Below are positions 2,217 through 26,921 of a DNA stretch of 38,623 bases, one piece after another. The position numbers were made by a program, and so were the translations under genes. The DNA is taken from IMG/VR virus record IMGVR_UViG_3300043568_000267, positions 1 through 38,623 of that record; one strand, written 5' to 3'. The DNA is from a virus. The number at the start of each line of letters is the position of its first letter. The first letter of the stretch is position 1. The notes under the pieces were generated by a model. That model had not been told where the DNA came from. It saw nothing but the letters and a program-made list of their open reading frames with translations, and did no database searches.

Positions 2217-5200
2217 TTACTCTTCTACTATACGGTAGCCTTTCGCTCTAAGGACATCTATCTCTTGTTGTGTAAGATATTTTACATCACCACCTTCCTT
2301 TTTATTAACCATATTGAGCATGTCATAGTATTCCATAAAACGTTTAACATTTATATTATCTCCTTGTGCTTCTCCCTGGTATACCGTTCTAGGTGAATTC
2401 CACATGTAATAACCTTTAGCTGGGTCAGAAAGTTTTTCATTATTTCCTTTAACTTCTTTAAATTTTATATCAGCTAATTTTTTATTTTCTTGGAGTAATC
2501 CCATTGTAACAATTGCTTGATGATTAGGATTCCATGGGTCATAGTTAAATTCAGAAATACCTAATTCGTCTAATTTTTTTACAAGACCAGGATTTCTATA
2601 TTCCCAATCAGTACCTGAATCCTTTGTATGTCCCCATATTGCAGCTTCTGGATTTATTTGAGTAATTCCTTGAGACTCGCCAATTCCCATTTTATCTGTA
2701 AGATATGAAGGTACTATACCATAACGAAATGTTCCCCAATCCATACCTCCTTTAGTTTCTGTTAAAGCAGTTGCAACAGCTCGTTTTGCATATTCATCAT
2801 ATTCATCATTTGTCAATCCAAATGTATTCATCATTTGTGTTTTGTTTTTTTCAAGTTGAGACATGAATGGTTTCATTTCATCTATATCAGATATCAATTT
2901 ACCTGTGCCAGGAAGATTTAAAGATAGCTTGTCAATTTTTTGATTCCAGGTCTTTCCTTTTTTTATTTTGTCATACGTATAACCAATATTTTCTTTAGGT
3001 GTTATGACATTCGTTATACCCATAATATTAACTAATGCCTTTGGATCTGCAATAGAATGTATTTTACCTTCATCAAAAATGTAAGGAGTACCGTATCTAT
3101 CATATCCTACAACTATAGTTGTATGGTTACTTGCAGATAAACCTTGTTCAGTGTTATACCCTTTACCAGTATCACCAGCCATTGTTCTAAAAGAATCATC
3201 ATCATCAGCTCCTCCTCCATTTATAATAGTTCCAATAGGAAGTTTTAGATCTCTATAATATTGTTCTATTTGAGTCTGATTCATATCTTTAAACTTATCA
3301 TTGAGAGGTCTGTTATTATTATCTTTTGCTGTAAAAAATAATTTACCTTGTTTTCTTTTAAATCCACCAGCTAAATCCCAGCTATCCCATGATTCACCTG
3401 CTTCATTATATGAAGGGTTAGCTCCTTCTTTACCACTAGACATTCCTGCAGCTTCTTTAAGTTGCCATGATGATTTACCACCAGGTAATTTTGGAGCTAC
3501 GTATTTATCATAATAACTAAATGCTGATTGAGCACAATTATACCCACTTTCTGAAAAACAATCTGATGCTCTTTTAGATATTTGATCAGATTCTGCTTCT
3601 GCTTTACTATACATAAAGTCATTATATGTTGAGCTTAATTGTTCTTCACTAGGTTTAAGTGTTACTTCACGTCCTTCAGTTACTCTTTGATATTCTGGAT
3701 TTAAAAATTGAGATAATTGCTGATTAGTTGGGTATGTAGGTTCTTGATTAAAAACTTTTTTAATTCTATTTTTAAAATTCATACCAAATTGTGCTGTTGG
3801 TAATTCTTCTACTACATAGCCGCCTTTTCTATACTCCTCTATTTCTGTATCTGTTAAATTTAAATATTGACCACCATCTTGTTTATAAACATCTTTATCA
3901 TAGAACATATGTAGTTCTAGAGCATTGTTACCTGGATCAGTATTACCACCATTTTGTTTACCTTTAAGGTATTTGTAAATGTTATCAGCAGCATTATACA
4001 TTTCTGGAGTAGACCCTTGTCTTTCCATTTTATAATCTTTAGCACCAAAACTATGTCTACCCATTCCTTTTTTAGCTAAGTGCGCTCTTACTAAACCATC
4101 TATATAATTATTATCCCAAGCCTCTCTACCATCTGTATAATTATAATTTTCTACATCATAATTATACCAATGATCCATTGAATTACTTCTAGATTTTTTA
4201 GACTCAGTTTTAAATTCATCTAATAACTTCATGTATTCTGGATCATTACGCATACCATGCATCATATCTAAGAACACATCATGTTTATTAGCTCCTCTAG
4301 GATTATAAACTGCTGTATATTTATCAGGAGTAGGACTTTGATATATAACATCGTTAGCAGGATCCTCTGCTAAATAAGTTACCTTACCTGTGCCAGGATG
4401 TATAAATTCAATATCTCCATAAGGAACTCCTGAATCACTTGGTGAAAAATTAGGATCCTTTATAATATTTAAGTTTTCACCTTGTTCCCCGTATACATTC
4501 TGCATACCTGGATATCTTTTTAGTATCCGTTTATTTAAACTACCACCAGGTTGAAAATGTACCATCTGATTATCTACATAAGATCCACCTGTGCCAAATT
4601 CTTCATTAAAGTTTAATGGAGTTCTTATAGTTTTATCAGCTTTTGCTTTAAATCTTTCAGATGCAGTATTAGGAGCGCGCATTGCATCTTTATATACTTT
4701 ACGCAATTCACTTTCCCAGTTGTTTGCATTATTTACTATATCTAGAAAATAATTATCATCATATGGAGTTGTGTTGACATCAATAATAGAAAACTGATCT
4801 GTTGCATCATCATACATTGTATTTTGTGGATTTACATAGTCAAGATGTATATTTCTCTTTTCTAATTCCTTTATCATATCAATGTATTCTTCAACAGCTT
4901 GTTGAGAAGGATTAAATGGTATACCTGGTCTACCAGGTACTCTAGGCATTATTTGTGCATATAATCTAGATGGTTTAAAAAACTCTGATTGTGTATCTGT
5001 ATTCCATGCTCTGTATGGTTCACCAAAATTTACAGCTTTATAAGGAAGTCCAAGACGCGGGTTATTTAATTCTTTTCCTACATTAACAATATGTTGCATT
5101 GTTTCAGGAGTTTCAAATACTGGAACATTACCTATTTTAACAAGTGTGTTCTTATCAAATGTAGTTGGGTAAACTTCTGTAAAGGCTCCTTCACCAACTT

Positions 5201-8200
5201 TATTTGTAGATTTTAAATTTATAGGTAATCTTAATCTATCTGCAACTCGTTGTTTCCAAAACTGATCTACTTCATAATTTGTTTTAACTTTATTAGATGT
5301 AGCATTTAATAATTCATTTGCAAGTGCTTTATCTTTATTAATACGTTTACCCATAAAGGATGTACCTGATTTGTCATAAAGTTTTTGTAACCTTTCTACT
5401 TCATCATTTACTGCTTTAACAAGTTTTTGAGAACGTCTAAAATCTACATTTTCACCTATACCTCTTAAGCCTAATTCTTTTGCATCTTTACTAAATGCAA
5501 AGGCAGGATCTCTACTAATTAGTTCAGTACGCCTATCTAATGCATTATATAATTCAGGGTTACTTAAGTTAGCCATTGCTTCTTCTCTAGTAAGAGTAGC
5601 AGGTTTAAATCCTTTACCTATAGACATTAATCCACGTTCTGTTCCAATAAGATTTTTTCCAGTATTATACCCTGTACGTGCTCCTAAGAAATCTAATGCA
5701 TTCAATCCTGTTTTACCTAAAGCTTCTCTTAAGCTAACATCTCCTTTTCCATAGTCATACCATGATTTAGCTGTACCAGGTAATTCTGTTGTTCCATAAC
5801 CAATAGCACCTAGATTAGCTAATTCACCTACTGATGCTCCTAAATAAGGAATATCAATTGCACCTATAGTACCAAGAGCTCTAAGTCCTAGTGGTAATTG
5901 CCATACTTCATCTACTGGTTGTGCTGCACCTGATGATCTTCTTTCCCAGTCTGCTTTAGCCAGCATTTGATTATTTGCATATTCATTAAACTTAGCTTTG
6001 TCTTGTGCACGTTTTGCTGACTTAATAGCTTTAGCTCCTTGTACTGTAGGACCTTTACCTTTTGCTAATGCAATATTTTGTTGTACTTGTGGTATATTAA
6101 GTAAAGCATTAGCTAATATTGGATCTAAATTAGTAGGTCCTTTATATCCAGCAGGTGTTACGGTAACTTCAGGTAATGTTTTAATACCACCATCTTGAAA
6201 CTTATATTCTCCTTTTGCAATAGTTTCAAGAATATTATCGTAAATATTAGGATTATTTAAATCATAAAAGCCTACATTACCTACTAAGCTTTTTGCATAA
6301 TTCCCTAGTTGTTGATTTAAAATAGTAACATAGTCAGATTGTACGCCATCAAAAAGATCTTTAATTTTTGCATAGTTTAGTTTATTCTTTTCAAGATGAC
6401 TAGCTAAATCGTCAGTACTTACATATTGTCCTTTTGTCATTTTTCCAGTAACTGGATCTTTATAAAAACCTGATCTAAATGCTCCAGGCTTCCCTTCCCA
6501 TGTATTTTGAATACCTAAGTTAGGATCTACTCCAATTTCTCTCCAACTATTAGCATCTTCAAATTCCAATGAATTTGTGCTTTTAGGATGTATTACTGTA
6601 TGTAATCGTTCTGGATTGTTACTTGCATAATGCATTCCAATATTACGGTCTCCTCCAAATACACTTCTTCCTTCTGGATGTTGTTTTGCTAATTCTTCAA
6701 AATTATTATAAGAATATCCTCTATGCATTGTTTCAAATCCTTCAGGATAAGATTCTTTAAAACGTTTACTCTGAGTCATAATAAATTCATGCTCAGCGAG
6801 TCCTTTATCTAAAGCTTCTTTAGAAGCTATATATTCAGATCCATCTGGATTTTTCATCCATGTTCCATTAGCTTTACTAGCTTCTTCTATAGCATTGTAT
6901 TCATTAATAAGTTCAGGATGCTTTAAAGTTTGCGGATTCCAGTTAGACCAATCTATAGCAGATTCAAAATTACTAGTTGCTGCAGGTAAGCTTTCCCTAA
7001 CTGCTTGAGAAGCATTTTGAACATTCCCTGCAGTTACTGCTTGATTATATAAAGTTCTTGATAAAGGATTATAAGTTGCAGCGCTAGGGTTTATTTGTGG
7101 AAACAATCTAGTTATAGGCAGGTTGTCTGCACTTCTTACAACTTGAGAACTTATATTAGGAAATACTCTTGTGCTTAAATAATTATTTACACCAGAATTT
7201 AATCCTAATCTGTTGCTAGTATTCATAGCATTTAGAGTAGCTCGTTCTCCTGTATTTAATAACCTGCCACTATTTCCTATGTATCTTGATCCTATTAAAT
7301 CTAAAGCAGTATTAAGTCCTGAGTATCCAGCTTGTTTCCAATCTTCTGCTTTTCCTGATTCTAAAGCTTTCTCTATATCATCTCTTGTATATATTGCATT
7401 ATCCATAAGACTTGCTGCTAATCCAACAGGAGTAAAATATCTTGCAAAGTTTGCAGCTTGTCCTACTGCATTTCTATTCCATAGCGGATCATCATATTCA
7501 GGACTTCTTTCAAACTCACTATAGTTCATAGGCATATTGAAGTCACCTGGTTGCATCGCATAAGTAGCAGCTACTAATGGGTTCCTTACTATATTCTCTA
7601 TCTTATCCATAGTAGAATATTCTTTTGCTGCTTTTAATGTTTCAGGTTCTTTCTGATAAGCAAGATAAATGTTTTCATCTAGCTTTTGTGGACTCATAAG
7701 TATTTCAGCCTTTTGCTCTTTTGTAAGCATAGGACTATTTTTTATTTCTTTTGCTACTATTTTTCTTTCTGCAGCTTTTTGAGCAATTGCTTTTTCTGTA
7801 ATATTTTTATCTACAGGAGCAATATTTGGTTTAGTTGATTCAGCTACTGTTGGTTTTACATCATTCAATGCATCATATGTTCTTCCTGTTCTTTTTACTG
7901 TTGGTTTGTTAGGTGATACTTGCATTGGATGTTTAACGTCTGCAGGTAACTTAAAAGGAGATGTTATTAAACCAAGCTGAGCTTTTGGTAATACATCTAC
8001 CACAAATCCTGCATCTTGATATTTTTTGATTTCTTCAGGAGTAAGATCCATTATAGAACCACCTTCTTCAAAAGAGCTAATACCATACTCATTTTGCAAA
8101 TCAAGCTGTTTAAACTGTTTTGCTTTTTCTTCTGGATTAATTCTACCTGTAGCACTCCATACACCTGTTCTATAGTTAGGTAAATATAACTTAGGATATT

Positions 8201-9419
8201 TCTTAGTTGGTTCTATATCATTCCATGGATCAGGATTAGTTGATTGTGCTTCAACTGGTGGTTCAAATTCTAAATCATCATTGATAGGTGGTGGAGTAAA
8301 GCTTAATGATTTATCTATATTTTCTGGAAAGTCATAATACACTTTTTCTGTAACTGGTTTTCCATTTTCATCAATCCTGTTTATTTCAGAAGAATTACTT
8401 GTTGGGTAATTAACTTGAACCATCTTAGCTTTTTGATTTTGCGATGACTGGCTAGATTGTGGTTTAGTAGAACTAACAGGTTTACCTGAAGTTGTAGGTT
8501 TAGTACTATCTGGTTTTTTAAGATATACAGGTTGTTTTGGAAAAGGAAATAATTCATCTGGATAGTCAGAAAGACCGCTAAACAATCTTCCTTTATAAGG
8601 TATTGCATGTGCATCATCAAGTCTTAAATCATCTTCTACAGTAGTAAAATCATACCATGGTTTTGCGTATCTACTTGATATATCTTTTCCTTTCCAATCA
8701 GGATGTCTTTTAAAAGCTCCTTCAGCTTTCTCACCAAATTTATATTTTTTTTGATCTTGTAGAAGTTTTTGTGCTACTTTTCTTTTTTGATCTTGCGTTT
8801 TTGCTGCAATTAAGTCGTCAGCATATTTCATCATAAAATGACTCAATTGTGCTCTAATTGTACTATCTTGACTAGCTAAAAGTCTTGGATCTTTAGGATT
8901 AGTTACATATATAGGTTTAACTCCACCTTTCTGCATAGATCTAGGATCATTTACTGCAAATGAGTTAGCTGGATTATGTTTAGGTGGATAAGGTATGTCT
9001 TGAGAATATACACCACCATTATCTTGTTGGGATAAGTCATCTACTATATACCCACCTGCTCTATACTGTTCAATCTCTTCATCTGTAAGATCCATGTATT
9101 CACCACCGTCTTGATACTCCTCCTCATCCATGTAAGGTTCATTGTATTTACGTAGAGTTGTATCAAAAGGATTAAGTATATCCTTTGATCCATTAGGTCC
9201 TTCTACAGCAATAGCATAAGGTGTAGGATTATAAAGTGTTGTACTTTCGTCTTCACCCATAATTCTATATTTACTATCTGCAGGTGGAGGACCTTGTTTA
9301 AAACCTTCTTGAGAAACAATAGGTTTTACATAAGGTACATCTTTACCAAATGGATTAGGCATAGCTACTTGCTTCCTTGCATTCTTTTTGTCTCTAGACA
9401 GTTGGGACTTATTATACAT
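2217..9419 (-). CDS. Giant modular ejected polyprotein, 2400 aa (ART-like, kinase-like, cysteine peptidase, lytic transglycosylase)
   Basis: The start overlaps the previous stop as TAATG. Visible architecture: LTxxEIxxY modules at about residues 107-130, 456-479, 1852-1880 and 2379-2400. Gly/Ala-rich duplicated segments lie at about 640-737 and 1177-1267. An ADP-ribosyltransferase-like region (about 890-1010) contains MHRGYSYNN (H899, R900), a YASNNPE motif and a late STDD. A kinase-like region (about 1400-1560) has GEGAFTEV (G1409, G1411, V1416), K1428, HLDYVNPQN (H1525, D1527, N1533) and IIDVN (D1547). A CHAP/NlpC-like cysteine peptidase has YNCAQ (C1962) and NHTTIVVGYD (H2099). A lytic-transglycosylase-like domain has ALTETKGG (E2221) and GESQGITQINP. 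The C-terminal pair would open peptidoglycan during entry, and the other domains could act in the host cytoplasm. The position after the large tail protein fits a packaged cargo protein. No DxDxD polymerase signature is seen, so it is not the crAss virion RNA polymerase. Domain calls are by eye; the ART call is the weakest. Confidence 0.75.
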   Translation of the reverse strand: MYNKSQLSRDKKNARKQVAMPNPFGKDVPYVKPIVSQEGFKQGPPPADSKYRIMGEDESTTLYNPTPYAIAVEGPNGSKDILNPFDTTLRKYNEPYMDEEEYQDGGEYMDLTDEEIEQYRAGGYIVDDLSQQDNGGVYSQDIPYPPKHNPANSFAVNDPRSMQKGGVKPIYVTNPKDPRLLASQDSTIRAQLSHFMMKYADDLIAAKTQDQKRKVAQKLLQDQKKYKFGEKAEGAFKRHPDWKGKDISSRYAKPWYDFTTVEDDLRLDDAHAIPYKGRLFSGLSDYPDELFPFPKQPVYLKKPDSTKPTTSGKPVSSTKPQSSQSSQNQKAKMVQVNYPTSNSSEINRIDENGKPVTEKVYYDFPENIDKSLSFTPPPINDDLEFEPPVEAQSTNPDPWNDIEPTKKYPKLYLPNYRTGVWSATGRINPEEKAKQFKQLDLQNEYGISSFEEGGSIMDLTPEEIKKYQDAGFVVDVLPKAQLGLITSPFKLPADVKHPMQVSPNKPTVKRTGRTYDALNDVKPTVAESTKPNIAPVDKNITEKAIAQKAAERKIVAKEIKNSPMLTKEQKAEILMSPQKLDENIYLAYQKEPETLKAAKEYSTMDKIENIVRNPLVAATYAMQPGDFNMPMNYSEFERSPEYDDPLWNRNAVGQAANFARYFTPVGLAASLMDNAIYTRDDIEKALESGKAEDWKQAGYSGLNTALDLIGSRYIGNSGRLLNTGERATLNAMNTSNRLGLNSGVNNYLSTRVFPNISSQVVRSADNLPITRLFPQINPSAATYNPLSRTLYNQAVTAGNVQNASQAVRESLPAATSNFESAIDWSNWNPQTLKHPELINEYNAIEEASKANGTWMKNPDGSEYIASKEALDKGLAEHEFIMTQSKRFKESYPEGFETMHRGYSYNNFEELAKQHPEGRSVFGGDRNIGMHYASNNPERLHTVIHPKSTNSLEFEDANSWREIGVDPNLGIQNTWEGKPGAFRSGFYKDPVTGKMTKGQYVSTDDLASHLEKNKLNYAKIKDLFDGVQSDYVTILNQQLGNYAKSLVGNVGFYDLNNPNIYDNILETIAKGEYKFQDGGIKTLPEVTVTPAGYKGPTNLDPILANALLNIPQVQQNIALAKGKGPTVQGAKAIKSAKRAQDKAKFNEYANNQMLAKADWERRSSGAAQPVDEVWQLPLGLRALGTIGAIDIPYLGASVGELANLGAIGYGTTELPGTAKSWYDYGKGDVSLREALGKTGLNALDFLGARTGYNTGKNLIGTERGLMSIGKGFKPATLTREEAMANLSNPELYNALDRRTELISRDPAFAFSKDAKELGLRGIGENVDFRRSQKLVKAVNDEVERLQKLYDKSGTSFMGKRINKDKALANELLNATSNKVKTNYEVDQFWKQRVADRLRLPINLKSTNKVGEGAFTEVYPTTFDKNTLVKIGNVPVFETPETMQHIVNVGKELNNPRLGLPYKAVNFGEPYRAWNTDTQSEFFKPSRLYAQIMPRVPGRPGIPFNPSQQAVEEYIDMIKELEKRNIHLDYVNPQNTMYDDATDQFSIIDVNTTPYDDNYFLDIVNNANNWESELRKVYKDAMRAPNTASERFKAKADKTIRTPLNFNEEFGTGGSYVDNQMVHFQPGGSLNKRILKRYPGMQNVYGEQGENLNIIKDPNFSPSDSGVPYGDIEFIHPGTGKVTYLAEDPANDVIYQSPTPDKYTAVYNPRGANKHDVFLDMMHGMRNDPEYMKLLDEFKTESKKSRSNSMDHWYNYDVENYNYTDGREAWDNNYIDGLVRAHLAKKGMGRHSFGAKDYKMERQGSTPEMYNAADNIYKYLKGKQNGGNTDPGNNALELHMFYDKDVYKQDGGQYLNLTDTEIEEYRKGGYVVEELPTAQFGMNFKNRIKKVFNQEPTYPTNQQLSQFLNPEYQRVTEGREVTLKPSEEQLSSTYNDFMYSKAEAESDQISKRASDCFSESGYNCAQSAFSYYDKYVAPKLPGGKSSWQLKEAAGMSSGKEGANPSYNEAGESWDSWDLAGGFKRKQGKLFFTAKDNNNRPLNDKFKDMNQTQIEQYYRDLKLPIGTIINGGGADDDDSFRTMAGDTGKGYNTEQGLSASNHTTIVVGYDRYGTPYIFDEGKIHSIADPKALVNIMGITNVITPKENIGYTYDKIKKGKTWNQKIDKLSLNLPGTGKLISDIDEMKPFMSQLEKNKTQMMNTFGLTNDEYDEYAKRAVATALTETKGGMDWGTFRYGIVPSYLTDKMGIGESQGITQINPEAAIWGHTKDSGTDWEYRNPGLVKKLDELGISEFNYDPWNPNHQAIVTMGLLQENKKLADIKFKEVKGNNEKLSDPAKGYYMWNSPRTVYQGEAQGDNINVKRFMEYYDMLNMVNKKEGGDVKYLTQQEIDVLRAKGYRIVEE

Positions 9420-12400
9420 TACCTAGGTGAATTAAGGTTTTTAACGTTAGCAATGTTAAATAACATTTTTACATTGCCAGATACTAATCTACGCAAAAGA
9501 ACTACATTTCTATAATGTCTGAACTTTTTTCTTTCAGTTGGGTACTTACTATAGTTCAGGTTAGCTGGATTAAGATTCTTGATGTAACCATTAGGTTCAG
9601 TTAAGAATATTGTTTCTGTAGCAAGTATAGACTGACCACGATTATTAGTTATATCCCAGAATTGGTTAAATCTATACTTGTTCTCTACTTTAGAGTAAAG
9701 GATATCTATTGAGTTAGGATTAATAATAGGATATGTTACTACATGTACAGTATCATTACTTGGCATAAGATTTAGCTTTAGCAAACCTGAGCACTGTTCA
9801 GAATTGTAGATTATACATTCATCAAAGTTAAAATAAAGATTATGATATCTATCATGACAGTTATCAGCATACTCATAACATTCTAATTGATATTCTAGGC
9901 TACGCATAGTTGTCATCTGCTGTACAGTATCTGATTGGAACTCTATCTCAAATGGATAATCAGTACCGTAATAATTACAGTAAGAGTCACACAAATAGTT
10001 ATGTAACCATACAGAATTATTCATTACAGACATGAATGTATTCTTACCTGGTATTAGATATGTAGGATGCCAGTCATGGTATGAAATCCATTGACCCATT
10101 TTAGGATCATAGCTTATAGTCCATGATGCATCTTGGAAATATGCAGGATCACCTAATTCTACAATTAAACCTGTTTCTTCTACTCTAAATATATTACGTC
10201 TTAAATACGTTAAAGTAAATGGAGAGTCAGGACGTAGTATGTAATCCTTCTTACAGAAATACATAAGCATGTTTTCATTGTCATATATTGATTGACAACC
10301 TATACCTATTAGTGGATTATCTATAAGTTCAAAGTCAGGGAAGTAATTAGTCAATTGATATGGTAGGTATTGTGCAAACCACCATTTTAGTTGACCAGGT
10401 AAAGATATCTCTTGAATACCTTTTCCACCTATAGCAAATATCTTACCTTGATTTTGTGATATATAGAATATACCTGTAGGAGTAGATACAACAGACATTC
10501 TATTCTGACAAGAACCATAACCATATGGTCTATCAGAGTTATCCATATATTGTAGAGCTTGTGAAAATAAACCACCATCTCCTATTGTTACTCTTGTACC
10601 TGCACCTAATGTTAGATTTTCAGATCCAAGGAACTGTACTGGTGATTCATCTTCAAATAGAATCAAAGCACCATTAAGATTTATATTCTTAATTGTAGTT
10701 ACTTTACTTCTAAAGTCTTTATAGTTAAGAGGCAAGAATACTCTCCAATAATCTTTTCTACTTTCTAATGATTGAGGTAGAGAATAGATTACTCTATTAG
10801 GTCTGTATACATAGCATGCTTCTGAAATACGCGGGTTATAATCTTGACGGTGTGTACTACCCCATGGTATCAGACTATTAAAAAGCTTATCTATGCTAAG
10901 ACTGAAATCATACTTAAAGTAGTTACCTGATTTAATTATGTCAGTGCTAAAGAGCTGCCCTAGATCTGTAAATTCATATGGGTCATAGAATCTTTCAAAT
11001 AGTGGTTCTCCCCAATCACGTAGATCAACATTAATACTTGACTCTACATAGAAGTCACGTACTCCAGAATTAAACAAGTACATGAATGCTCTTCTTACTA
11101 TAAATACACCATTAGGCGATTCTAAATAATTTGCAAGTCCAGGTTGTCTATCAAGGCAGCTTTTATCAGATGGAGTTACAAATGTTGATAAAAAGGATCC
11201 TGGATCACTAATTAGATTACCAAAAGCTGTAGCAAAACTTTGAATAAATTCTGAATAGTCATACTCTTCTGTATCCATCCAGTAAGTAGTATGCGGTATC
11301 ATTTTATTTATTCTGTAGTTGTATTCAGAACCATCAGGTTGGCTATACATCCAGTTATAGAAAAAGAACATTGTATTCTTTTCTGTATATCTACCTACAT
11401 ATGTATCTCCATTAAATAGTACACCTGTCTGATTAATAGTTTTATCTACACTACATGTTGAAACAGGAACTTGTATAACTGATTCAATTCTGCCATATTG
11501 ATTTCTATTACGCAGTTTTAATCCTACATAGTGGGAGGATGCTGTTGAATTAAAAGGAGTCTGTGGTCTTTTAAACTTATCTGCATCAGATAACGCGTTA
11601 CCTTGAGAATCTCTCATGTCAGCATACCCTACTGTAACACGTGTATTGTCTTCAGTAAGAGGATCTAGCATTTTACGATAAGTCTGAACTATAACAGATC
11701 TAGATCTAAATAAATTATTTACTCTATAATTTGCTCTAAAGTCTTGTATATATGGTTCAAGATATCTTGCATCATTTATACTTGTCCTCTTGTTAATGGA
11801 TTGAGGTAATACAAATGAAGTATACTGACAATGTGAATTATACTGTAATGCATATTGCTCAAATTTGCTAGCTGCTTTTAATAATCTTAATGTTGAATCA
11901 ATTCCATCTACTAAGTAGTTATAGAACATAATTGGTTTACTAAGAAGACCCAAATTTAATGCTGCAACAGGCGTATTAGAAAATGTGGTGGTAGAATATC
12001 CACTTAACATTCCAGGTGTTTGATATTGTCCTGATAATATTAAATTTAATTGTGCAGTTTTAGCTGCTATTGCTGCTTGTATTGCCAAGTTTGCAGGAAA
12101 AGGTGTTATTGCAGCAATTGCAGTTAATGCATCTATTTCAGCTTGTAGTTCTTCAATTTCATCTGCACCAGGTACTAATCCTGGAACACCTTGAAAATAT
12201 GTTTGAGCTAATAATCCCTGACCAGGTACAGCAACAGGGCTAGGTTGAAATCCTGCAGCAGGCGTCCATGTACCACCTAAGTTAATTGCTTGAGGTGTAA
12301 CTTGAACTTGATCTCTTTTTTCTGTTATTGCTAATAAAGCAATACCAGTACCTATTAATGCAGATGATATGAATGCTACATCTGTTACTAATTTATTTTT

Positions 12401-14638
12401 AGGATGTTTATCAGGAAATCCAAAGGCACCTTCTGCTAATCCATTTAGTTCACCATATATCTTAAATTCAGTAGCACCAAGAAAAGGATCTGTAAATTGT
12501 GTATCAGGTGAATGAAATGTAAAGTTATCTTGACTATATGTATCTAAAGGTTCGTATCCTCTATAGTTATCATCATTGTATGTTGGGCCACTATTACCTG
12601 ATACAGGTTCAAAACTTACTGGTGTTTTAGAAATAAATGGATCAGGTCTTAAATCATTATATGGATAGTTAGGAATTAACCCTGTTCTTTTAGTAATTAA
12701 GTTTGTGCTAGCATCGTTATCACCATCATCAATTTTATACTCAAACATATTGTTAACCATACCTTTAGCTACAATAGTTTCTTGACCATTACGTGAGCCA
12801 CGTAGAATTTCATATCCTACAATATTGGTAATAGCATTACCGTCATTGTCTACAGGTACTCTTACGTTTTCAAACTTAACACCCATTATTCTAACAGTCC
12901 CTCCTCCTTCAGCAAAGTGATTAGTTAATCTTGCAGGAGAAGTATCAGTTGCATTATCAGGAAACTTATGATGTCTAATTGGTTTACCACATAAATCATA
13001 GTCTACATAATCTGTATTAGAATAAGGTATTGGTGGTGTAGGAGTACCTGGACAAGGTACTGTCCAAGGAGTAAGTGTTGACCAGCAATTTGAGGATGCA
13101 TTCCATACATCAGGACTGTTATCATCATATATTTCTAGTGACTCCCAGTAACCCATGTATCCTTCAGCTACTTGTATACCACCATCAGGTAGTGCTACTT
13201 GTGCTGTAGATGTAACAATGGCAGTATTATGTACTTGCCAGTTTAATATACTACCAACAGGATCACCTGCAACTATTTCAGGTTCAGCATTTGTAATATC
13301 ATTTATTCCTGCTATAGAATTTTTTTCTAATGCAGGTCCAGGAAGGTCAGGGTTATTCCATGTAGGACTTCCAGCTAATGTACTAAATGCAGGTCTTCCA
13401 GGTATATGATAAGAAACAGACTTGTCCCCTGTATTATATACCCAACGTATAAAGAACGTATATACTTCATCACGTAAGTAACCTACGTTATTACCTCCTG
13501 TACGGTAATAGTTTTCAGGGTATTCAACATTAACCCACTTAGTAACTATCTGGTTAGCTAAAGGCTGGTAGTTAAAATCAAACTTATCTGTAGGACCTAC
13601 ACGTAACATATAAGGACCTGCTTCAAATATACCATCTGATTTATCAGCTATAGGTGTTCTTATAGTTAATGAATTAAGAGATATTTGTGGCCATGTAGTA
13701 TCTATGAAGTCTATAGTAATCTTTGATTGTCTAGTACTATAGTTACCTACTTTAGAAGCAACAGTTTGATTATTAAAGAACTGTACAAGTACTAATTCAA
13801 ATTGATCAAATTGATCAGTATCTAGTCTATCAAAGTAAATATCTAATGATGAAGATACATTCCTATGAATAAACAGCGGTTGTATATTAGATGGTATGTA
13901 GTAATCTGTAACGCGTTGCTCTTGTACAGAGTAAGCAACTACTACGTAATAAGAACCATTAGGTATAGTTCCACCTGTTGTACCTTTTTCTACTCTTAGA
14001 CAAGGCTGTACTGTAAGAGGTTCTAATCGTAATTTATCACAATCTAGGTTAGGAGTATTCTCAAGTGTACTACAAGGTCCTGAAGGAGTAGTATCAATCT
14101 GTATCCATGGTATAGGAGAATCAATATTAGTATAGGCGTTGTTAGCAGGATTGTCTACATCTATTGTAATGATTCTATCAGGGTTAACACCATCAGACCA
14201 ATAAACATTCCATCTACACTGAAAGTCTTGTTTAGATACACCAGTAATAAGATTAGCTCTACTGAAGTTTAAGCACTGAGCACCAACAAGCTTGAAGTAT
14301 TCACAAGAGTCTTCCTTAAATATCCCTATTTCATGGTTACTATCATCAGTACTGTATATCACAAACGCATCTGCCTTAATGTGTATAGCACCAATTATAG
14401 ACAAAGGTGAGCCAGTAGGTGTACCATCTGATGTTATTGCAATACAGAATTTATTAGATGCTTCATTACCTAGTGATCCTATATCCCCTGTCTTAGAGTT
14501 ATTGATAGCATTTCTAGCTTGAGTCCATGAGTTATCATCTACTAGATAGTTATCTACGTCTTCTACTAGATTCTTTGTAAACCCCTGAGCTTTTATATCA
14601 TCAGTATCCTGATTAGCTCCTCTTCTTGTTTTAGCCAT
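9419..14638 (-). CDS. Large tail protein, crAss 'stabilization'/muzzle-type, 1739 aa
   Basis: Very long protein, predominantly beta-like, with many aromatic/Asn-rich strands. It directly follows the ring-protein genes, where crAss-like phages encode the large tail protein annotated as 'stabilization protein' and described structurally as the muzzle. The N-terminus (MAKTRRGANQDTDD, then NNSKTGDIGSLGNEASN) fits the family as I recall it. An atypical segment sits inside: a hydrophobic helix at about residues 748-775 (VAFISSALIGTGIALLAI), then an Ala/Glu-rich helical stretch at about 824-873. The start lies 12 nt after the 322-aa gene, and the stop overlaps the next start (TAATG), suggesting coupled translation. 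It probably forms the distal tail nozzle and gates ejection. The call rests on size, position and recalled N-terminal pattern, not on a catalytic motif. Confidence 0.75.
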   Translation of the reverse strand: MAKTRRGANQDTDDIKAQGFTKNLVEDVDNYLVDDNSWTQARNAINNSKTGDIGSLGNEASNKFCIAITSDGTPTGSPLSIIGAIHIKADAFVIYSTDDSNHEIGIFKEDSCEYFKLVGAQCLNFSRANLITGVSKQDFQCRWNVYWSDGVNPDRIITIDVDNPANNAYTNIDSPIPWIQIDTTPSGPCSTLENTPNLDCDKLRLEPLTVQPCLRVEKGTTGGTIPNGSYYVVVAYSVQEQRVTDYYIPSNIQPLFIHRNVSSSLDIYFDRLDTDQFDQFELVLVQFFNNQTVASKVGNYSTRQSKITIDFIDTTWPQISLNSLTIRTPIADKSDGIFEAGPYMLRVGPTDKFDFNYQPLANQIVTKWVNVEYPENYYRTGGNNVGYLRDEVYTFFIRWVYNTGDKSVSYHIPGRPAFSTLAGSPTWNNPDLPGPALEKNSIAGINDITNAEPEIVAGDPVGSILNWQVHNTAIVTSTAQVALPDGGIQVAEGYMGYWESLEIYDDNSPDVWNASSNCWSTLTPWTVPCPGTPTPPIPYSNTDYVDYDLCGKPIRHHKFPDNATDTSPARLTNHFAEGGGTVRIMGVKFENVRVPVDNDGNAITNIVGYEILRGSRNGQETIVAKGMVNNMFEYKIDDGDNDASTNLITKRTGLIPNYPYNDLRPDPFISKTPVSFEPVSGNSGPTYNDDNYRGYEPLDTYSQDNFTFHSPDTQFTDPFLGATEFKIYGELNGLAEGAFGFPDKHPKNKLVTDVAFISSALIGTGIALLAITEKRDQVQVTPQAINLGGTWTPAAGFQPSPVAVPGQGLLAQTYFQGVPGLVPGADEIEELQAEIDALTAIAAITPFPANLAIQAAIAAKTAQLNLILSGQYQTPGMLSGYSTTTFSNTPVAALNLGLLSKPIMFYNYLVDGIDSTLRLLKAASKFEQYALQYNSHCQYTSFVLPQSINKRTSINDARYLEPYIQDFRANYRVNNLFRSRSVIVQTYRKMLDPLTEDNTRVTVGYADMRDSQGNALSDADKFKRPQTPFNSTASSHYVGLKLRNRNQYGRIESVIQVPVSTCSVDKTINQTGVLFNGDTYVGRYTEKNTMFFFYNWMYSQPDGSEYNYRINKMIPHTTYWMDTEEYDYSEFIQSFATAFGNLISDPGSFLSTFVTPSDKSCLDRQPGLANYLESPNGVFIVRRAFMYLFNSGVRDFYVESSINVDLRDWGEPLFERFYDPYEFTDLGQLFSTDIIKSGNYFKYDFSLSIDKLFNSLIPWGSTHRQDYNPRISEACYVYRPNRVIYSLPQSLESRKDYWRVFLPLNYKDFRSKVTTIKNINLNGALILFEDESPVQFLGSENLTLGAGTRVTIGDGGLFSQALQYMDNSDRPYGYGSCQNRMSVVSTPTGIFYISQNQGKIFAIGGKGIQEISLPGQLKWWFAQYLPYQLTNYFPDFELIDNPLIGIGCQSIYDNENMLMYFCKKDYILRPDSPFTLTYLRRNIFRVEETGLIVELGDPAYFQDASWTISYDPKMGQWISYHDWHPTYLIPGKNTFMSVMNNSVWLHNYLCDSYCNYYGTDYPFEIEFQSDTVQQMTTMRSLEYQLECYEYADNCHDRYHNLYFNFDECIIYNSEQCSGLLKLNLMPSNDTVHVVTYPIINPNSIDILYSKVENKYRFNQFWDITNNRGQSILATETIFLTEPNGYIKNLNPANLNYSKYPTERKKFRHYRNVVLLRRLVSGNVKMLFNIANVKNLNSPR

Positions 14639-23587: not shown

Positions 23588-24088
23588 TTATTTTAAGAAA
23601 AGTAACTTATATTTAGTAGAGTTGATGCTGTCCTTTACTAAATCTAGATTGTTTACTATTTCTGAATAAGGTAACATACCTTGTAGTTTGTTTATCATAG
23701 CATAGATGTCTCTTAGATAAGCTACACCATCTGCTACTGTATCAAGTGTTCTACATGCAACATCTTTACATACAAGAATTTTTTCAGATACTCCTTGATA
23801 TCCCTCTACAAGAGTATCAGCATGTCCTGGTAAACCATCATAGAAATCTCCTATTGCTATATGTGCAGCATAAGATCCTTCTCCAGTAACTTTTAAATGT
23901 AATTTATGAAAACTGTTTCTAGCATTCATTAGCTCCATAGCACAAGCAGCTACCATGTTATCTAAAGAACTACCGCCTACTCCTGCATCTGACGTAGGTT
24001 GTGGTTTAGGTTGTTCAACAGGAGCCTGTGGTCTGCTTATTGTTTTTGCAGGCTCAGGGTTTCTTTTTAATATGCGTGATTGTTCCAT
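23588..24088 (-). CDS. Dps/ferritin-like (DUF5856-type) protein, 166 aa
   Basis: Residues 1-45 are a Pro/Gln-rich linker; the rest looks all-helical. HKLHLKVTGEGSYAAH is followed by a GDFYDGLPGHADTLVEGYQG stretch, giving H64, H76, D91 and E95. Their spacing (12, 15, 4) is exactly that of the Dps ferroxidase ligands (E. coli Dps H51, H63, D78, E82), and the flanking HxxHxxxxG and DxLxE patterns also match. I recall this type as DUF5856, found in phage genomes. Possible roles are iron/oxidant handling, a helical-bundle structural protein, or DNA protection in the virion. The helical part (about 120 aa) is shorter than typical Dps, so iron oxidation is unproven. It lies 4 nt after a ring-protein gene. 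Confidence 0.65.
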   Translation of the reverse strand: MEQSRILKRNPEPAKTISRPQAPVEQPKPQPTSDAGVGGSSLDNMVAACAMELMNARNSFHKLHLKVTGEGSYAAHIAIGDFYDGLPGHADTLVEGYQGVSEKILVCKDVACRTLDTVADGVAYLRDIYAMINKLQGMLPYSEIVNNLDLVKDSINSTKYKLLFLK

Positions 24089-24976: not shown

Positions 24977-25720
24977 TTATCCTTTCTTACGACCTGCAGC
25001 AGCCATTTTTTGAAACTTACTGTTACCATATTTCTTACGTCCTATAGCAGCAGCAATAGCTTTAGCAGCATCTTCTGATTTACCAGCTTTTTGAATCTTA
25101 GATGAAAGAGCTTTAAATCTTTCTCCTGAACCTAGTTTAGGTTTTTTAATACTACCACCTTTTTTTTGTTCAGATAATGAATTTGACATATCATCCATAT
25201 ACATTCTTCCCATACCTGAACCTCTTCCAGTTTGTGGTTTTTTAGGCGCAATAGGTTTTTTAAAAACCTGCGGTGAAGATGTATCATAACTAAAGTTTGG
25301 ATTCGTATTATATATTTGAAGTGAATCACTACCAACAGAAGTACCATTTTGAGCTTTACGTAAAGGTTTTTTAGCTGTAGCTTTTATAGCTCCACCTTTC
25401 TTTTGTTTTTCTAAAGGATCTACCCGTGATACTGATTTACCTTTTCCAAAACCTTTTGTTTTAGTAGTTCTTACTGTTGTATTTGCAGGAGAAGTTATTG
25501 GATAACTATCTTTTTCATCATAAACATAATTTGTTGTTTCAGGATTGTTTGTTACAGTAGTTGTACTTCGGCCAGGTTTACTCATATTCATGACTTTATT
25601 AAAATACTTTTCCCTACTTATTTCTTTAGAGTTACCTCTTCTATTAGTTTTATAGAATTTAGCGGTATCTCCACCATCTTTCATTTTTGTAGCAGCTTTT
25701 TTAACAACCTTTTTCATCAT
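24977..25720 (-). CDS. Basic low-complexity virion-type protein, 247 aa
   Basis: Lys/Gly/Ser/Thr-rich and probably largely disordered. It contains the recurring KMKDGG, KKGGAIKAT and KKGGSIKKPK elements. The C-terminal 50 residues form a compact basic domain (GSGERFKALSSKIQKAGKSE, then IGRKKYGNSKFQKMAAAGRK), a motif I recall from small basic proteins of many phages. The start could be the first or second of two adjacent Met codons. It is likely a DNA-associated internal or assembly protein. It lies in the capsid-to-ring interval with other basic proteins; exact function unknown. Confidence 0.6.
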   Translation of the reverse strand: MMKKVVKKAATKMKDGGDTAKFYKTNRRGNSKEISREKYFNKVMNMSKPGRSTTTVTNNPETTNYVYDEKDSYPITSPANTTVRTTKTKGFGKGKSVSRVDPLEKQKKGGAIKATAKKPLRKAQNGTSVGSDSLQIYNTNPNFSYDTSSPQVFKKPIAPKKPQTGRGSGMGRMYMDDMSNSLSEQKKGGSIKKPKLGSGERFKALSSKIQKAGKSEDAAKAIAAAIGRKKYGNSKFQKMAAAGRKKG

Positions 25721-25733
25721 TATATAAATTAAA

Positions 25734-26006
25734 TTAACAATTCCATTTTCTTAAAGAAAGAGCTTTTCTTGTTGGTCTTCCTTTTTCATCTTTCATAGGG
25801 CCTTTAACCCCTGACATTCTAGCACAGAAACTCTTACGTCTCTTAGCATCTTTACTTCCAGCTTTAAGCTTAGAAGGTTTTGTAGTAACAGCAGTCTGTA
25901 ACTTACTACCTGGATTCTCCCTACGGTATGAAGCTACTCCTTTAGCATTTAATCCTCCTTTGGGATCTTTGCCTTCTTTGCGAGTCCATGCTGGTGTCTT
26001 TGCCAT
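25734..26006 (-). CDS. DUF6321-like small basic protein, 90 aa
   Basis: Nearly the whole protein matches a pattern I recall as DUF6321: WTRKEGKDPKGGLNAKG, YRRENPGSKL, KRRKSFCARMSGVKG and a C-terminal RKALSLRKWNC. Such proteins occur widely in tailed phages of aquatic and gut bacteria; function is unknown. It is strongly basic, with two conserved cysteines, one in SFCARM and one at the C-terminus, which might pair or bind a metal. It is 2 nt from the preceding stop. In this context a nucleic-acid-binding virion or assembly role is likely, as for its neighbours. Confidence 0.7.
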   Translation of the reverse strand: MAKTPAWTRKEGKDPKGGLNAKGVASYRRENPGSKLQTAVTTKPSKLKAGSKDAKRRKSFCARMSGVKGPMKDEKGRPTRKALSLRKWNC

Positions 26007-26008
26007 TA

Positions 26009-26161
26009 CTATTTCTTTTTAGTAGAAGCTTTAATCTTCTTCTCTTGTTTCAACATAGCTTTAGTAGGTTTCTTTCCAGAACCTTTAGCAGCACGGATGT
26101 TATCCCAAAGTCCTCTTTGAGATGTACTACCGTCTTTTCTTTTTAGCATTTCCTTTGCCAT
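26009..26161 (-). CDS. Small basic protein, 50 aa
   Basis: I chose the start at 26161 (MAKEMLKRKDGSTSQRGLWD), because the longer in-frame start (26212) gives an atypical N-terminus and overlaps the previous gene further. Even so it overlaps that gene's end by 35 nt. The motif GLWDNIRAAKGSGKKP resembles a short basic domain frequently seen in small phage proteins. It is Lys-rich to the end (KKIKASTKKK). Function unknown; it is part of the basic-protein string. Confidence 0.6.
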   Translation of the reverse strand: MAKEMLKRKDGSTSQRGLWDNIRAAKGSGKKPTKAMLKQEKKIKASTKKK

Positions 26162-26489
26162 TGTACTTATAATCAGGGTTGTCTTTATGCCATTTTTTAG
26201 TTGCAGCAACACCTTGCTTAACAGTTTTTGCTCTTCCTTTTGCAGTAAGATCTATTGTATCCCACTGACCTTTATCTTTAGTAGGATGGTTAACCATAAT
26301 GTTACCAATCTTTCCTTCACCTCTTTTTGTAGTCTTCTTATAGACTATATGTTTTTCACCTCCAGCTACTACAGTTGTTCCACCTTTTTTAAATGGTTTG
26401 ACAAATTGATTAGCAGCTTTCTTAGAAGCAGAGTAAGCCCTAGGTGTTCTAGGGCTAGCTACTGCTGCTTTATTTTTAATAGATTTCAC
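26127..26489 (-). CDS. Basic protein with KKGG motif and WHKDNP domain, 120 aa
   Basis: The N-terminal 40 residues are Ala/Lys-rich (PRTPRAYSASKKAANQFVK), followed by KKGGTTVVAGGEKHIVYKK and a folded-looking C-terminal domain (NHPTKDKGQWDTIDLT, then VAATKKWHKDNPDYKYNGKG). The latter pattern is one I recall from small phage proteins of unknown role. The start overlaps the stop of the 90-aa gene by 4 nt (ATGA), and the end overlaps the next gene by 35 nt, so the genes are tightly coupled. The predicted charge is strongly positive, consistent with contact with packaged DNA. Confidence 0.6.
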   Translation of the reverse strand: MKSIKNKAAVASPRTPRAYSASKKAANQFVKPFKKGGTTVVAGGEKHIVYKKTTKRGEGKIGNIMVNHPTKDKGQWDTIDLTAKGRAKTVKQGVAATKKWHKDNPDYKYNGKGNAKKKRR

Positions 26490-26758
26490 CGTTTAACCTT
26501 ACGTTTAGTGGTTCCACCTTTTTTTTTCTTTTCAAAAAGTTCTTTACCTAACGCTAGCGTACCAAGGAGTGATGACCCAATGCCAGACCATGTGATAGCG
26601 TTTTGAGCTCTACTGTCTTTTTTAGCAGCTAAGCTTGGATAACCTTGAGCAACAGCTTTATCATTACGTCTTTCCTGAAATGACTTTTTAGGTTTTTCTC
26701 CACCATTTTTCATCTTAGTAGCACCACCACAAGATTTACATGCTAATTTTTTTTTCAT
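26486..26758 (-). CDS. Small basic protein with CxxCGG knuckle and hydrophobic helix, 90 aa
   Basis: The start is taken at 26758 (MKKKLACKSCGGATKMKNGG); the longer in-frame ATG at 26806 overlaps the upstream 50-aa gene. Features in order: a CKSC pair that could be half of a zinc knuckle, KMKNGG, the segment KSFQERRNDK, a hydrophobic Gly/Ser helix (AITWSGIGSSLLGTLALGK) that could be membrane-associated or a packed capsid helix, and a KKKKGGTTKRK tail. It overlaps the next gene by 4 nt. Function unknown. Confidence 0.6.
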   Translation of the reverse strand: MKKKLACKSCGGATKMKNGGEKPKKSFQERRNDKAVAQGYPSLAAKKDSRAQNAITWSGIGSSLLGTLALGKELFEKKKKGGTTKRKVKR

Positions 26759-26768
26759 AACTAAAAAA

Positions 26769-26921
26769 TTATCTACCTTGACCTTTTTTAGGAATAGCTC
26801 CAGCATTTTTTCCTCCTGTATAACGAGTAGGATTTTTTTCAGCGTATACAGGTGCGTTAGTACCTCCTACACGCCCTGTAGCTTTTTTAGATGCTACTAC
26901 CTTTTCATTATTTGCTTTCAT
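26769..26921 (-). CDS. Tiny basic Gly/Lys-rich protein, 50 aa
   Basis: Short ORF reading MKANNEKVVASKKATGRVGG at the start and AGAIPKKGQGR at the end, filling the space between the 337-aa gene (33 nt upstream) and the 90-aa gene (10 nt downstream). Composition matches the neighbouring basic proteins, with RVGG and TGGK elements, and it keeps the tight spacing of the string, so I regard it as a real gene. No known domain. Confidence 0.55.
   Translation of the reverse strand: MKANNEKVVASKKATGRVGGTNAPVYAEKNPTRYTGGKNAGAIPKKGQGR

What the first reader, a model, noticed from the sequence alone, without database searches (positions are those of the whole stretch)
2217..9419. A 2400-aa ejected polyprotein carrying several host-acting enzyme-like domains
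One virion-associated protein appears to combine ADP-ribosyltransferase-like, protein-kinase-like, cysteine-peptidase-like and lytic-transglycosylase-like segments. If it is ejected, the phage would deliver both cell-wall-opening and cytoplasmic effector activities from one chain, before any gene expression. In crAss-like phages this slot encodes ejected cargo proteins, but this combination is not one I know as described.
Basis: partly seen in the sequence, partly recalled or inferred. Interest (0 to 1): 0.85.

Follow-up and report, generated by a model that had tools for sequence, protein, structure and literature searches.

The report
Modular virion effector polyprotein of crAss-like phage
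A crAss-like phage encodes, right after its tail-tip gene, one 2,400-residue protein that probably rides in the virus particle and combines a host-modifying ADP-ribosyltransferase, a mini protein kinase and likely wall-cutting domains, separated by short repeated tags that dozens of related phages share while swapping the parts between them.

Summary
The ORF is real: minus strand, 2217-9419, 2400 aa, directly after the muzzle gene in a crAss-like late operon. ART-like: supported (13/25 relatives of the module hit PF18760 ART-PolyVal; the window model's best viral fold match is a PolyVal ADP-ribosyltransferase, E=6e-4). Kinase-like: supported (invariant G/K/D/N/D; profile, fold and NCBIfam hits all point to NleH/OspG mini-kinases). 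Transglycosylase-like: suggestive. Cysteine-peptidase-like: only a conserved Cys/His/Asp. The protein is a mosaic. The same slot in about 80 related phages holds genes of 253-2383 aa with exchanged modules (SLT, lysozyme, VanY, YkuD, SET, ART, kinase). A 26-aa tag ends or punctuates these proteins: 0 of 755 ORFs upstream of the muzzle carry it, 57 of 285 downstream do, and all 71 placed hits in 34 whole records lie within about 12 kb downstream of the muzzle. Virion association is inferred: phi4:1 gp40, with a homologous N-terminal domain, was found in virions by MS/MS. Best reading: a crAss-like version of the known 'polyvalent proteins', with a tag-delimited architecture I found no description of. 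Ejection, activity and cleavage are untested.

The parts
2217..9419 (-). whole ORF, 2400 aa, slot directly after the muzzle gene
   Evidence: relatives
9126..9419 (-). N-terminal domain (aa 1-98), divergent copy of the slot's N-domain; homologous domain in phi4:1 gp40, seen in virions by MS/MS
   Evidence: the window copy was inside the iterated model, so its E-value is optimistic
9030..9107 (-). tag A copy 1 (aa 105-130) GGEYMDLTDEEIEQYRAGGYIVDDLS
8070..8942 (-). segment aa 160-450, no recurrent module found
7986..8063 (-). tag A copy 2 (aa 453-478), followed by leader-like LPKAQLG
6915..7652 (-). segment before the ART module (aa 590-835), shared in part with other slot proteins
6219..6902 (-). 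ADP-ribosyltransferase-like module (aa 840-1067), ends with the conserved KS..GN.G.(F/Y)D..NPNIY motif
5595..6032 (-). segment before the kinase (aa 1130-1275), shared with about 12 other phage proteins
4755..5249 (-). mini protein-kinase-like module (aa 1391-1555): G1409, K1428, D1527, N1533, D1547
3951..4586 (-). module X (aa 1612-1823), unknown function, shared with L002, L040, L120
3888..3950 (-). tag B GGNTDPGNNALELHMFYDKDV (aa 1824-1844)
3798..3875 (-). tag A copy 3 (aa 1849-1874), followed by leader-like LPTAQFG
2934..3695 (-). cysteine-peptidase-like module (aa 1909-2162): C1962, H2099, D2116; kept next to the lysozyme-like module in 3 of 3 phages
2301..2882 (-). lytic-transglycosylase/lysozyme-like module (aa 2180-2373): E2221, SQGITQ 2249-2254
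2220..2294 (-). tag A copy 4 at the very C-terminus (aa 2376-2400)
   Evidence: E=1.2e-4
9419..14638 (-). upstream neighbour: muzzle (tail tip) protein, PF25731
4..2151 (-). downstream neighbour P0002, GG-motif-rich 715 aa protein

Best explanation
The gene encodes a virion cargo protein that works like a polyvalent protein. It is a fusion of several cargo units, each a module closed by a short C-terminal-type tag (tag A) and often followed by a leader-like LPKAQxG. The N-terminal domain probably seats the chain in the tail/capsid cargo zone. During entry the C-terminal peptidase-like plus transglycosylase-like pair would open peptidoglycan locally, while the ART and the mini-kinase would reach the cytoplasm and modify host proteins before phage genes are expressed. 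Related phages exchange modules, with exchange boundaries concentrated at the tags. Shown: architecture, tag distribution, module exchange, ART and kinase relationship. Inferred: packaging, ejection, catalytic activity, targets, and whether the chain is cut at the tags.
For: Virion link: slot next to the muzzle, and homologous N-domain (E=1.4e-17) in phi4:1 gp40, annotated from MS/MS of virions; its neighbour gp41 was found by MS/MS too, and the phi17:2 counterpart reads as a lysozyme/zincin-like protein (my reading). ART: 13/25 module relatives hit PF18760; fold match E=5.9e-4, probability 1.00. Kinase: invariant G/K/D/N/D over 5 divergent members; profile hits NleH2, a T3 effector kinase and NleH1, E 9e-4 to 2e-3; top Foldseek ranks NleH2/OspG/NleH1; NCBIfam NleH E=0.003 for the window sequence alone. 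Mosaic: L002 matches 1-487 and 1612-2400 but lacks the ART/kinase block; in L124 SLT, PEP+LYS and ART are three consecutive genes. Tag: 89 copies in 59 proteins, 39 at the C-terminus, behind 22 unrelated bodies; 0/755 ORFs upstream vs 57/285 downstream of the muzzle; 71 of 71 placed hits in 34 records are 0.3-12 kb downstream of the muzzle. Similarity ends within 30 aa of internal tags 215 times vs 63 expected. One tag block is 84% identical in DNA over 147 bp between otherwise dissimilar flanks. Slot proteins carry SLT, LysM, lysozyme, VanY, YkuD, amidase, SET and ART domains.
Against: No proteomics for this phage. Both structure models are low overall (mean pLDDT 45 and 53); the model covering PEP and LYS matches nothing. 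The kinase fold ranking is itself at E 0.1-0.7. PEP hits neither CHAP nor NlpC/P60. The kinase does not match PF18762 Kinase-PolyVal. ART catalytic residues of the window copy could not be fixed; its subtype has no Pfam hit on its own. No strongly hydrophobic, transmembrane-like segment, so passage into the cytoplasm would rely on other proteins. Statistics use related, non-independent genomes.
Confidence: 0.7

Rival explanations
1. Structural or tail-assembly protein whose enzyme-like modules are decayed or act as binding folds; the tags are assembly joints and nothing is ejected.
For: The homologous phi4:1 protein is annotated simply as a virion structural protein; ART catalytic residues of the window copy are unclear, and much of the chain is predicted with low confidence.
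Against: Kinase catalytic residues are invariant over members only 23-28% identical to the window copy; slots of other phages carry recognisable SLT, VanY, amidase and YkuD domains; modules differ between close relatives, unlike a structural core.
Confidence: 0.15
2. Purely wall-directed entry protein: the C-terminal pair digests peptidoglycan and the ART/kinase-like parts have another role, for example modifying virion proteins during assembly.
For: Wall enzymes are the commonest recognised enzymes in the slot (SLT in 9 of 70 scanned); PEP and LYS stay together in the window, L002 and L124.
Against: Relatives of the ART and kinase modules are injected host modifiers (ART-PolyVal, and PMC5512222; NleH/OspG-like); SET domains in 4 of 70 slot proteins also point to protein modification.
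Confidence: 0.12
3. The tags are maturation-protease sites: the chain is cut into separate cargo proteins in the head, as happens with T4 internal proteins. Compatible with the main explanation.
For: Internal tags copy the C-termini of separate genes, and some are followed by the LPKAQxG motif that also occurs near the N-termini of cargo genes.
Against: Many proteins keep the tag at the very C-terminus, where a cut would release only a tail; no protease or cleavage product was identified. Only 14 of 46 internal tags are followed within 15 aa by the strict KAQxG pattern.
Confidence: 0.3

Closest known systems
Phage/plasmid polyvalent proteins (Iyer et al. 2017, PMC5512222)
   Same: Large multi-domain chain, disparate enzymes including ART, kinase and peptidase, thought to be injected with DNA; ART module is related to ART-PolyVal
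   Different: Kinase does not match PF18762; no Pfam domain recognised in this chain itself; modules punctuated by shared short tags; not found described for crAss-like phages in the library searched
Crassvirus cargo proteins C1/C2 (gp45/gp46 of crAss001, PMC10172136)
   Same: Gene slot after the muzzle, presumed virion cargo, GG-rich sequence
   Different: No detectable homology to gp45 or gp46; enzymatic modules
Polymorphic toxin systems
   Same: Conserved N-terminus, swapped effector modules
   Different: Modules all along the chain, not only at the C-terminus; immunity genes not looked for; phage late-operon context
NleH/OspG mini-kinases (type III effectors)
   Same: Closest profile and fold match of the kinase module; short kinase
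   Different: Phage-borne, low similarity, fused in a cargo chain
T4 Alt and internal proteins (own knowledge; Alt also in PMC5512222)
   Same: Head-packaged ART or protein acting on the host at entry; short signals on packaged proteins
   Different: No homology shown; tag is C-terminal and internal rather than an N-terminal propeptide

Membership tests
Polyvalent proteins | two or more domains of disparate biochemical activity in one chain | tested here: met
   ART and kinase modules in one ORF
Polyvalent proteins | encoded by phage or mobile element with virion/transfer context | tested here: met
   crAss-like late operon after the muzzle gene
Polyvalent proteins | injected with the genome | not testable with these tools
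   only indirect: phi4:1 gp40 with homologous N-domain in virions by MS/MS
ART-PolyVal (PF18760) | profile match | tested here: inconclusive
   13/25 module relatives match, window copy does not; window model's fold match E=5.9e-4
Kinase-PolyVal (PF18762) | profile match | tested here: not met
   0 of 18 records including the window
Protein kinase-like fold | Gly loop, Lys, catalytic Asp, Asn, metal-binding Asp | tested here: met
   G1409, K1428, D1527, N1533, D1547 invariant in 5
Lytic transglycosylase (SLT, PF01464) | profile match and catalytic Glu with GxxQ-type motif | tested here: inconclusive
   E and SxGxTQ conserved; a relative hits SLT at E=0.06; hhalign probability 43%, 10% with fewer sequences
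CHAP or NlpC/P60 peptidase | profile match | tested here: not met
   no match in the window record; Cys/His/Asp conserved in 3 of 3
Crassvirus cargo C1 (gp45) | sequence homology | tested here: not met

The most novel reading that the evidence does not exclude
Tag A is a portable virion-loading (or processing) signal: modules placed before it are packaged and delivered, so this phage group runs a cassette system that shuffles injected effectors by recombination at the tags, and internal copies are relics of formerly separate cargo genes.
Probability: 0.35. Interest if true: 0.85.

Novelty: new variant of a known kind. Interest (0 to 1): 0.68.

Why it matters
Crassviruses are abundant, yet what their cargo does at entry is largely unknown. 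This points to a hypervariable gene next to the tail tip that would deliver host-modifying enzymes together with wall enzymes, and to a short tag that could be a general packaging or processing signal. Both are testable in cultured relatives such as Cellulophaga phages phi4:1 and phi17:2 (N-domain) or Leptolyngbya phage Lbo-JY46 (N-domain and tag).

Tried and rejected
Whole-chain searches of Pfam, PHROGs, phages, IMG/VR and PDB found nothing significant. A gp45 (C1) homology of the slot protein, or of the 872-aa gene two places downstream in L002, was suspected by eye and not supported by profile search. Pretoxin-like or membrane helices before ART and kinase: no segment is hydrophobic enough, and the shared GLN..LD motif was found only in the window's two copies. 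PEP against a Cys-containing segment of L003: no match. ART module in bacterial genomes: none confirmed. Kinase alignment too diverse to scan IMG/VR. Mixed alignments for structure prediction misplaced kinase rows; A16 was used. Structure of X-PEP-LYS too poor to use. Tag and N-domain have no clear PDB relative.

Full report
WHERE IT IS. The window is an IMG/VR virus fragment of 38,623 bases. Its minus strand carries a crAss-like late operon: terminase, portal, major head protein, a Dps-like protein (PHROG 'starvation-inducible transcriptional regulator'), small virion proteins and a muzzle protein. The ORF in question lies at 2217-9419 on the minus strand, 2400 aa, and begins on the last base of the muzzle ORF.

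RELATIVES BY POSITION. The whole chain finds nothing by itself. Relatives were reached through the neighbouring muzzle gene. Immediately after the muzzle, related phages carry a gene of very variable size, 253 to 2383 aa where it is not cut by the locus end. 62 of 82 first genes share an N-terminal domain. The same domain starts phi4:1 gp40 (E=1.4e-17), which its record describes as a virion structural protein on the basis of experimental MS/MS proteomics. The window's own copy of the domain is divergent and is linked to the family mainly through L002 and L008.

MOSAIC. Against L002 the window protein matches at 1-487 and at 1612-2400 (44% identity), and the ART/kinase block between them has no counterpart there. 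Module profiles show the ART module in 34 proteins, the kinase in 5, module X in 4, PEP in 4 and LYS in 6, in different orders and companies; some entries are near-identical contigs. In L124 SLT, PEP+LYS and ART sit in three successive genes.

ART. The module has fixed ends (EYNAIE..., KS..GN.G.FD..NPNIY) and a variable core. 13 of 25 members match ART-PolyVal, best 6.9e-17; the window's HRG/YRG subtype does not match by itself. The model of window residues 835-1605 (ART part pLDDT mostly 70-89) has as its only viral fold match below 0.001 a PolyVal ADP-ribosyltransferase (E=5.9e-4, probability 1.00).

KINASE. Five members, the others 23-28% identical to the window copy, keep G, K, D, N and D at kinase positions. 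The profile's best PDB matches are NleH2, a type III effector kinase and NleH1 (E 9e-4 to 2e-3), with HCK and B-Raf N-lobes behind. Foldseek of the low-confidence model ranks NleH2, OspG and NleH1 first, but only at E 0.1-0.7, probability up to 0.77. NCBIfam NleH is hit at E=0.003 by the window sequence alone. PF18762 Kinase-PolyVal is not matched.

WALL-ACTING PAIR. LYS keeps E and S.G.TQ; one relative hits SLT at E=0.06; profile comparison with the slot's true SLT domains gives probability 43%, falling to 10% with fewer sequences. PEP keeps Cys, His and Asp in three sequences and matches no peptidase family, PDB chain or fold. PEP and LYS stay adjacent in the window, L002 and L124, which suggests, but does not show, a joint wall function.

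TAGS. Tag A, consensus GGIILELTDEEIEEYRKGGYIVEELD, occurs 89 times in 59 proteins by profile; 39 copies end within 6 aa of the protein's C-terminus, behind 22 unrelated sequence bodies. None of 755 ORFs upstream of the muzzle carries it, against 57 of 285 downstream (Fisher p=1e-34, genomes not independent). A search of 47 whole records (3.9 Mb) found it in 36; all 71 hits in the 34 records where I placed the muzzle lie 285-12,044 bases downstream of it. Ends of similarity between slot proteins fall within 30 aa of an internal tag 215 times, 63 expected under circular shifts; alignments that run into the shared tag and stop there contribute to this. A tag block in the window is 84% identical in DNA over 147 bp to one in L003, with dissimilar flanks. 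Some internal tags are followed by LPKAQxG, a motif also found near the start of several cargo genes; KAQxG-type motifs number 200 in downstream ORFs against 79-100 in shuffles and 44 upstream, and 14 of 46 internal tags have one within 15 aa.

WHAT THE SLOT CARRIES. Among 70 slot proteins Pfam recognises DUF5872 (10), SLT (9), LysM (7), SET (4), lysozymes, VanY, YkuD, an amidase, metallopeptidase-like DUF6782 (2) and ART-PolyVal (1).

READING. This is best described as working like a polyvalent protein (PMC5512222), in the crassvirus cargo position (PMC10172136), with a tag-delimited architecture I found no description of; a library search for 'crAss-like' with 'polyvalent protein' gave one paper, on an N4-like Pectobacterium phage. 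Delivery into the host, activity, targets and cleavage remain inference. How one chain could serve both periplasm and cytoplasm is open: cleavage at the tags or sequential threading are the obvious options, neither tested.

Noticed in passing
window 24977-26806, minus strand: Several small basic proteins rich in KxGG motifs (24977-25720, 26127-26489, 26486-26806); the GG motif also abounds in P0002 (4-2151).
   Followed up: partly
slot proteins of related loci, probably L062 and L081 among them: SET-domain (protein methyltransferase family) hits in 4 of 70 slot proteins and DUF5872 in 10; which proteins carry them was not tabulated.
   Followed up: no
L011 (Leptolyngbya phage Lbo-JY46, record 70883-99421): A muzzle homolog, N-domain protein and C-terminal tag A in a phage recorded from a cyanobacterium; the host may deserve checking.
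   Followed up: no
window 23588-24088, minus strand: Dps/starvation-inducible-like protein encoded in the structural operon (PHROG 858, E=2.9e-17).
   Followed up: no
L005:4786-13201: Slot gene appears split into two overlapping frames (2103 and 720 aa), possibly a frameshift or assembly error.
   Followed up: no
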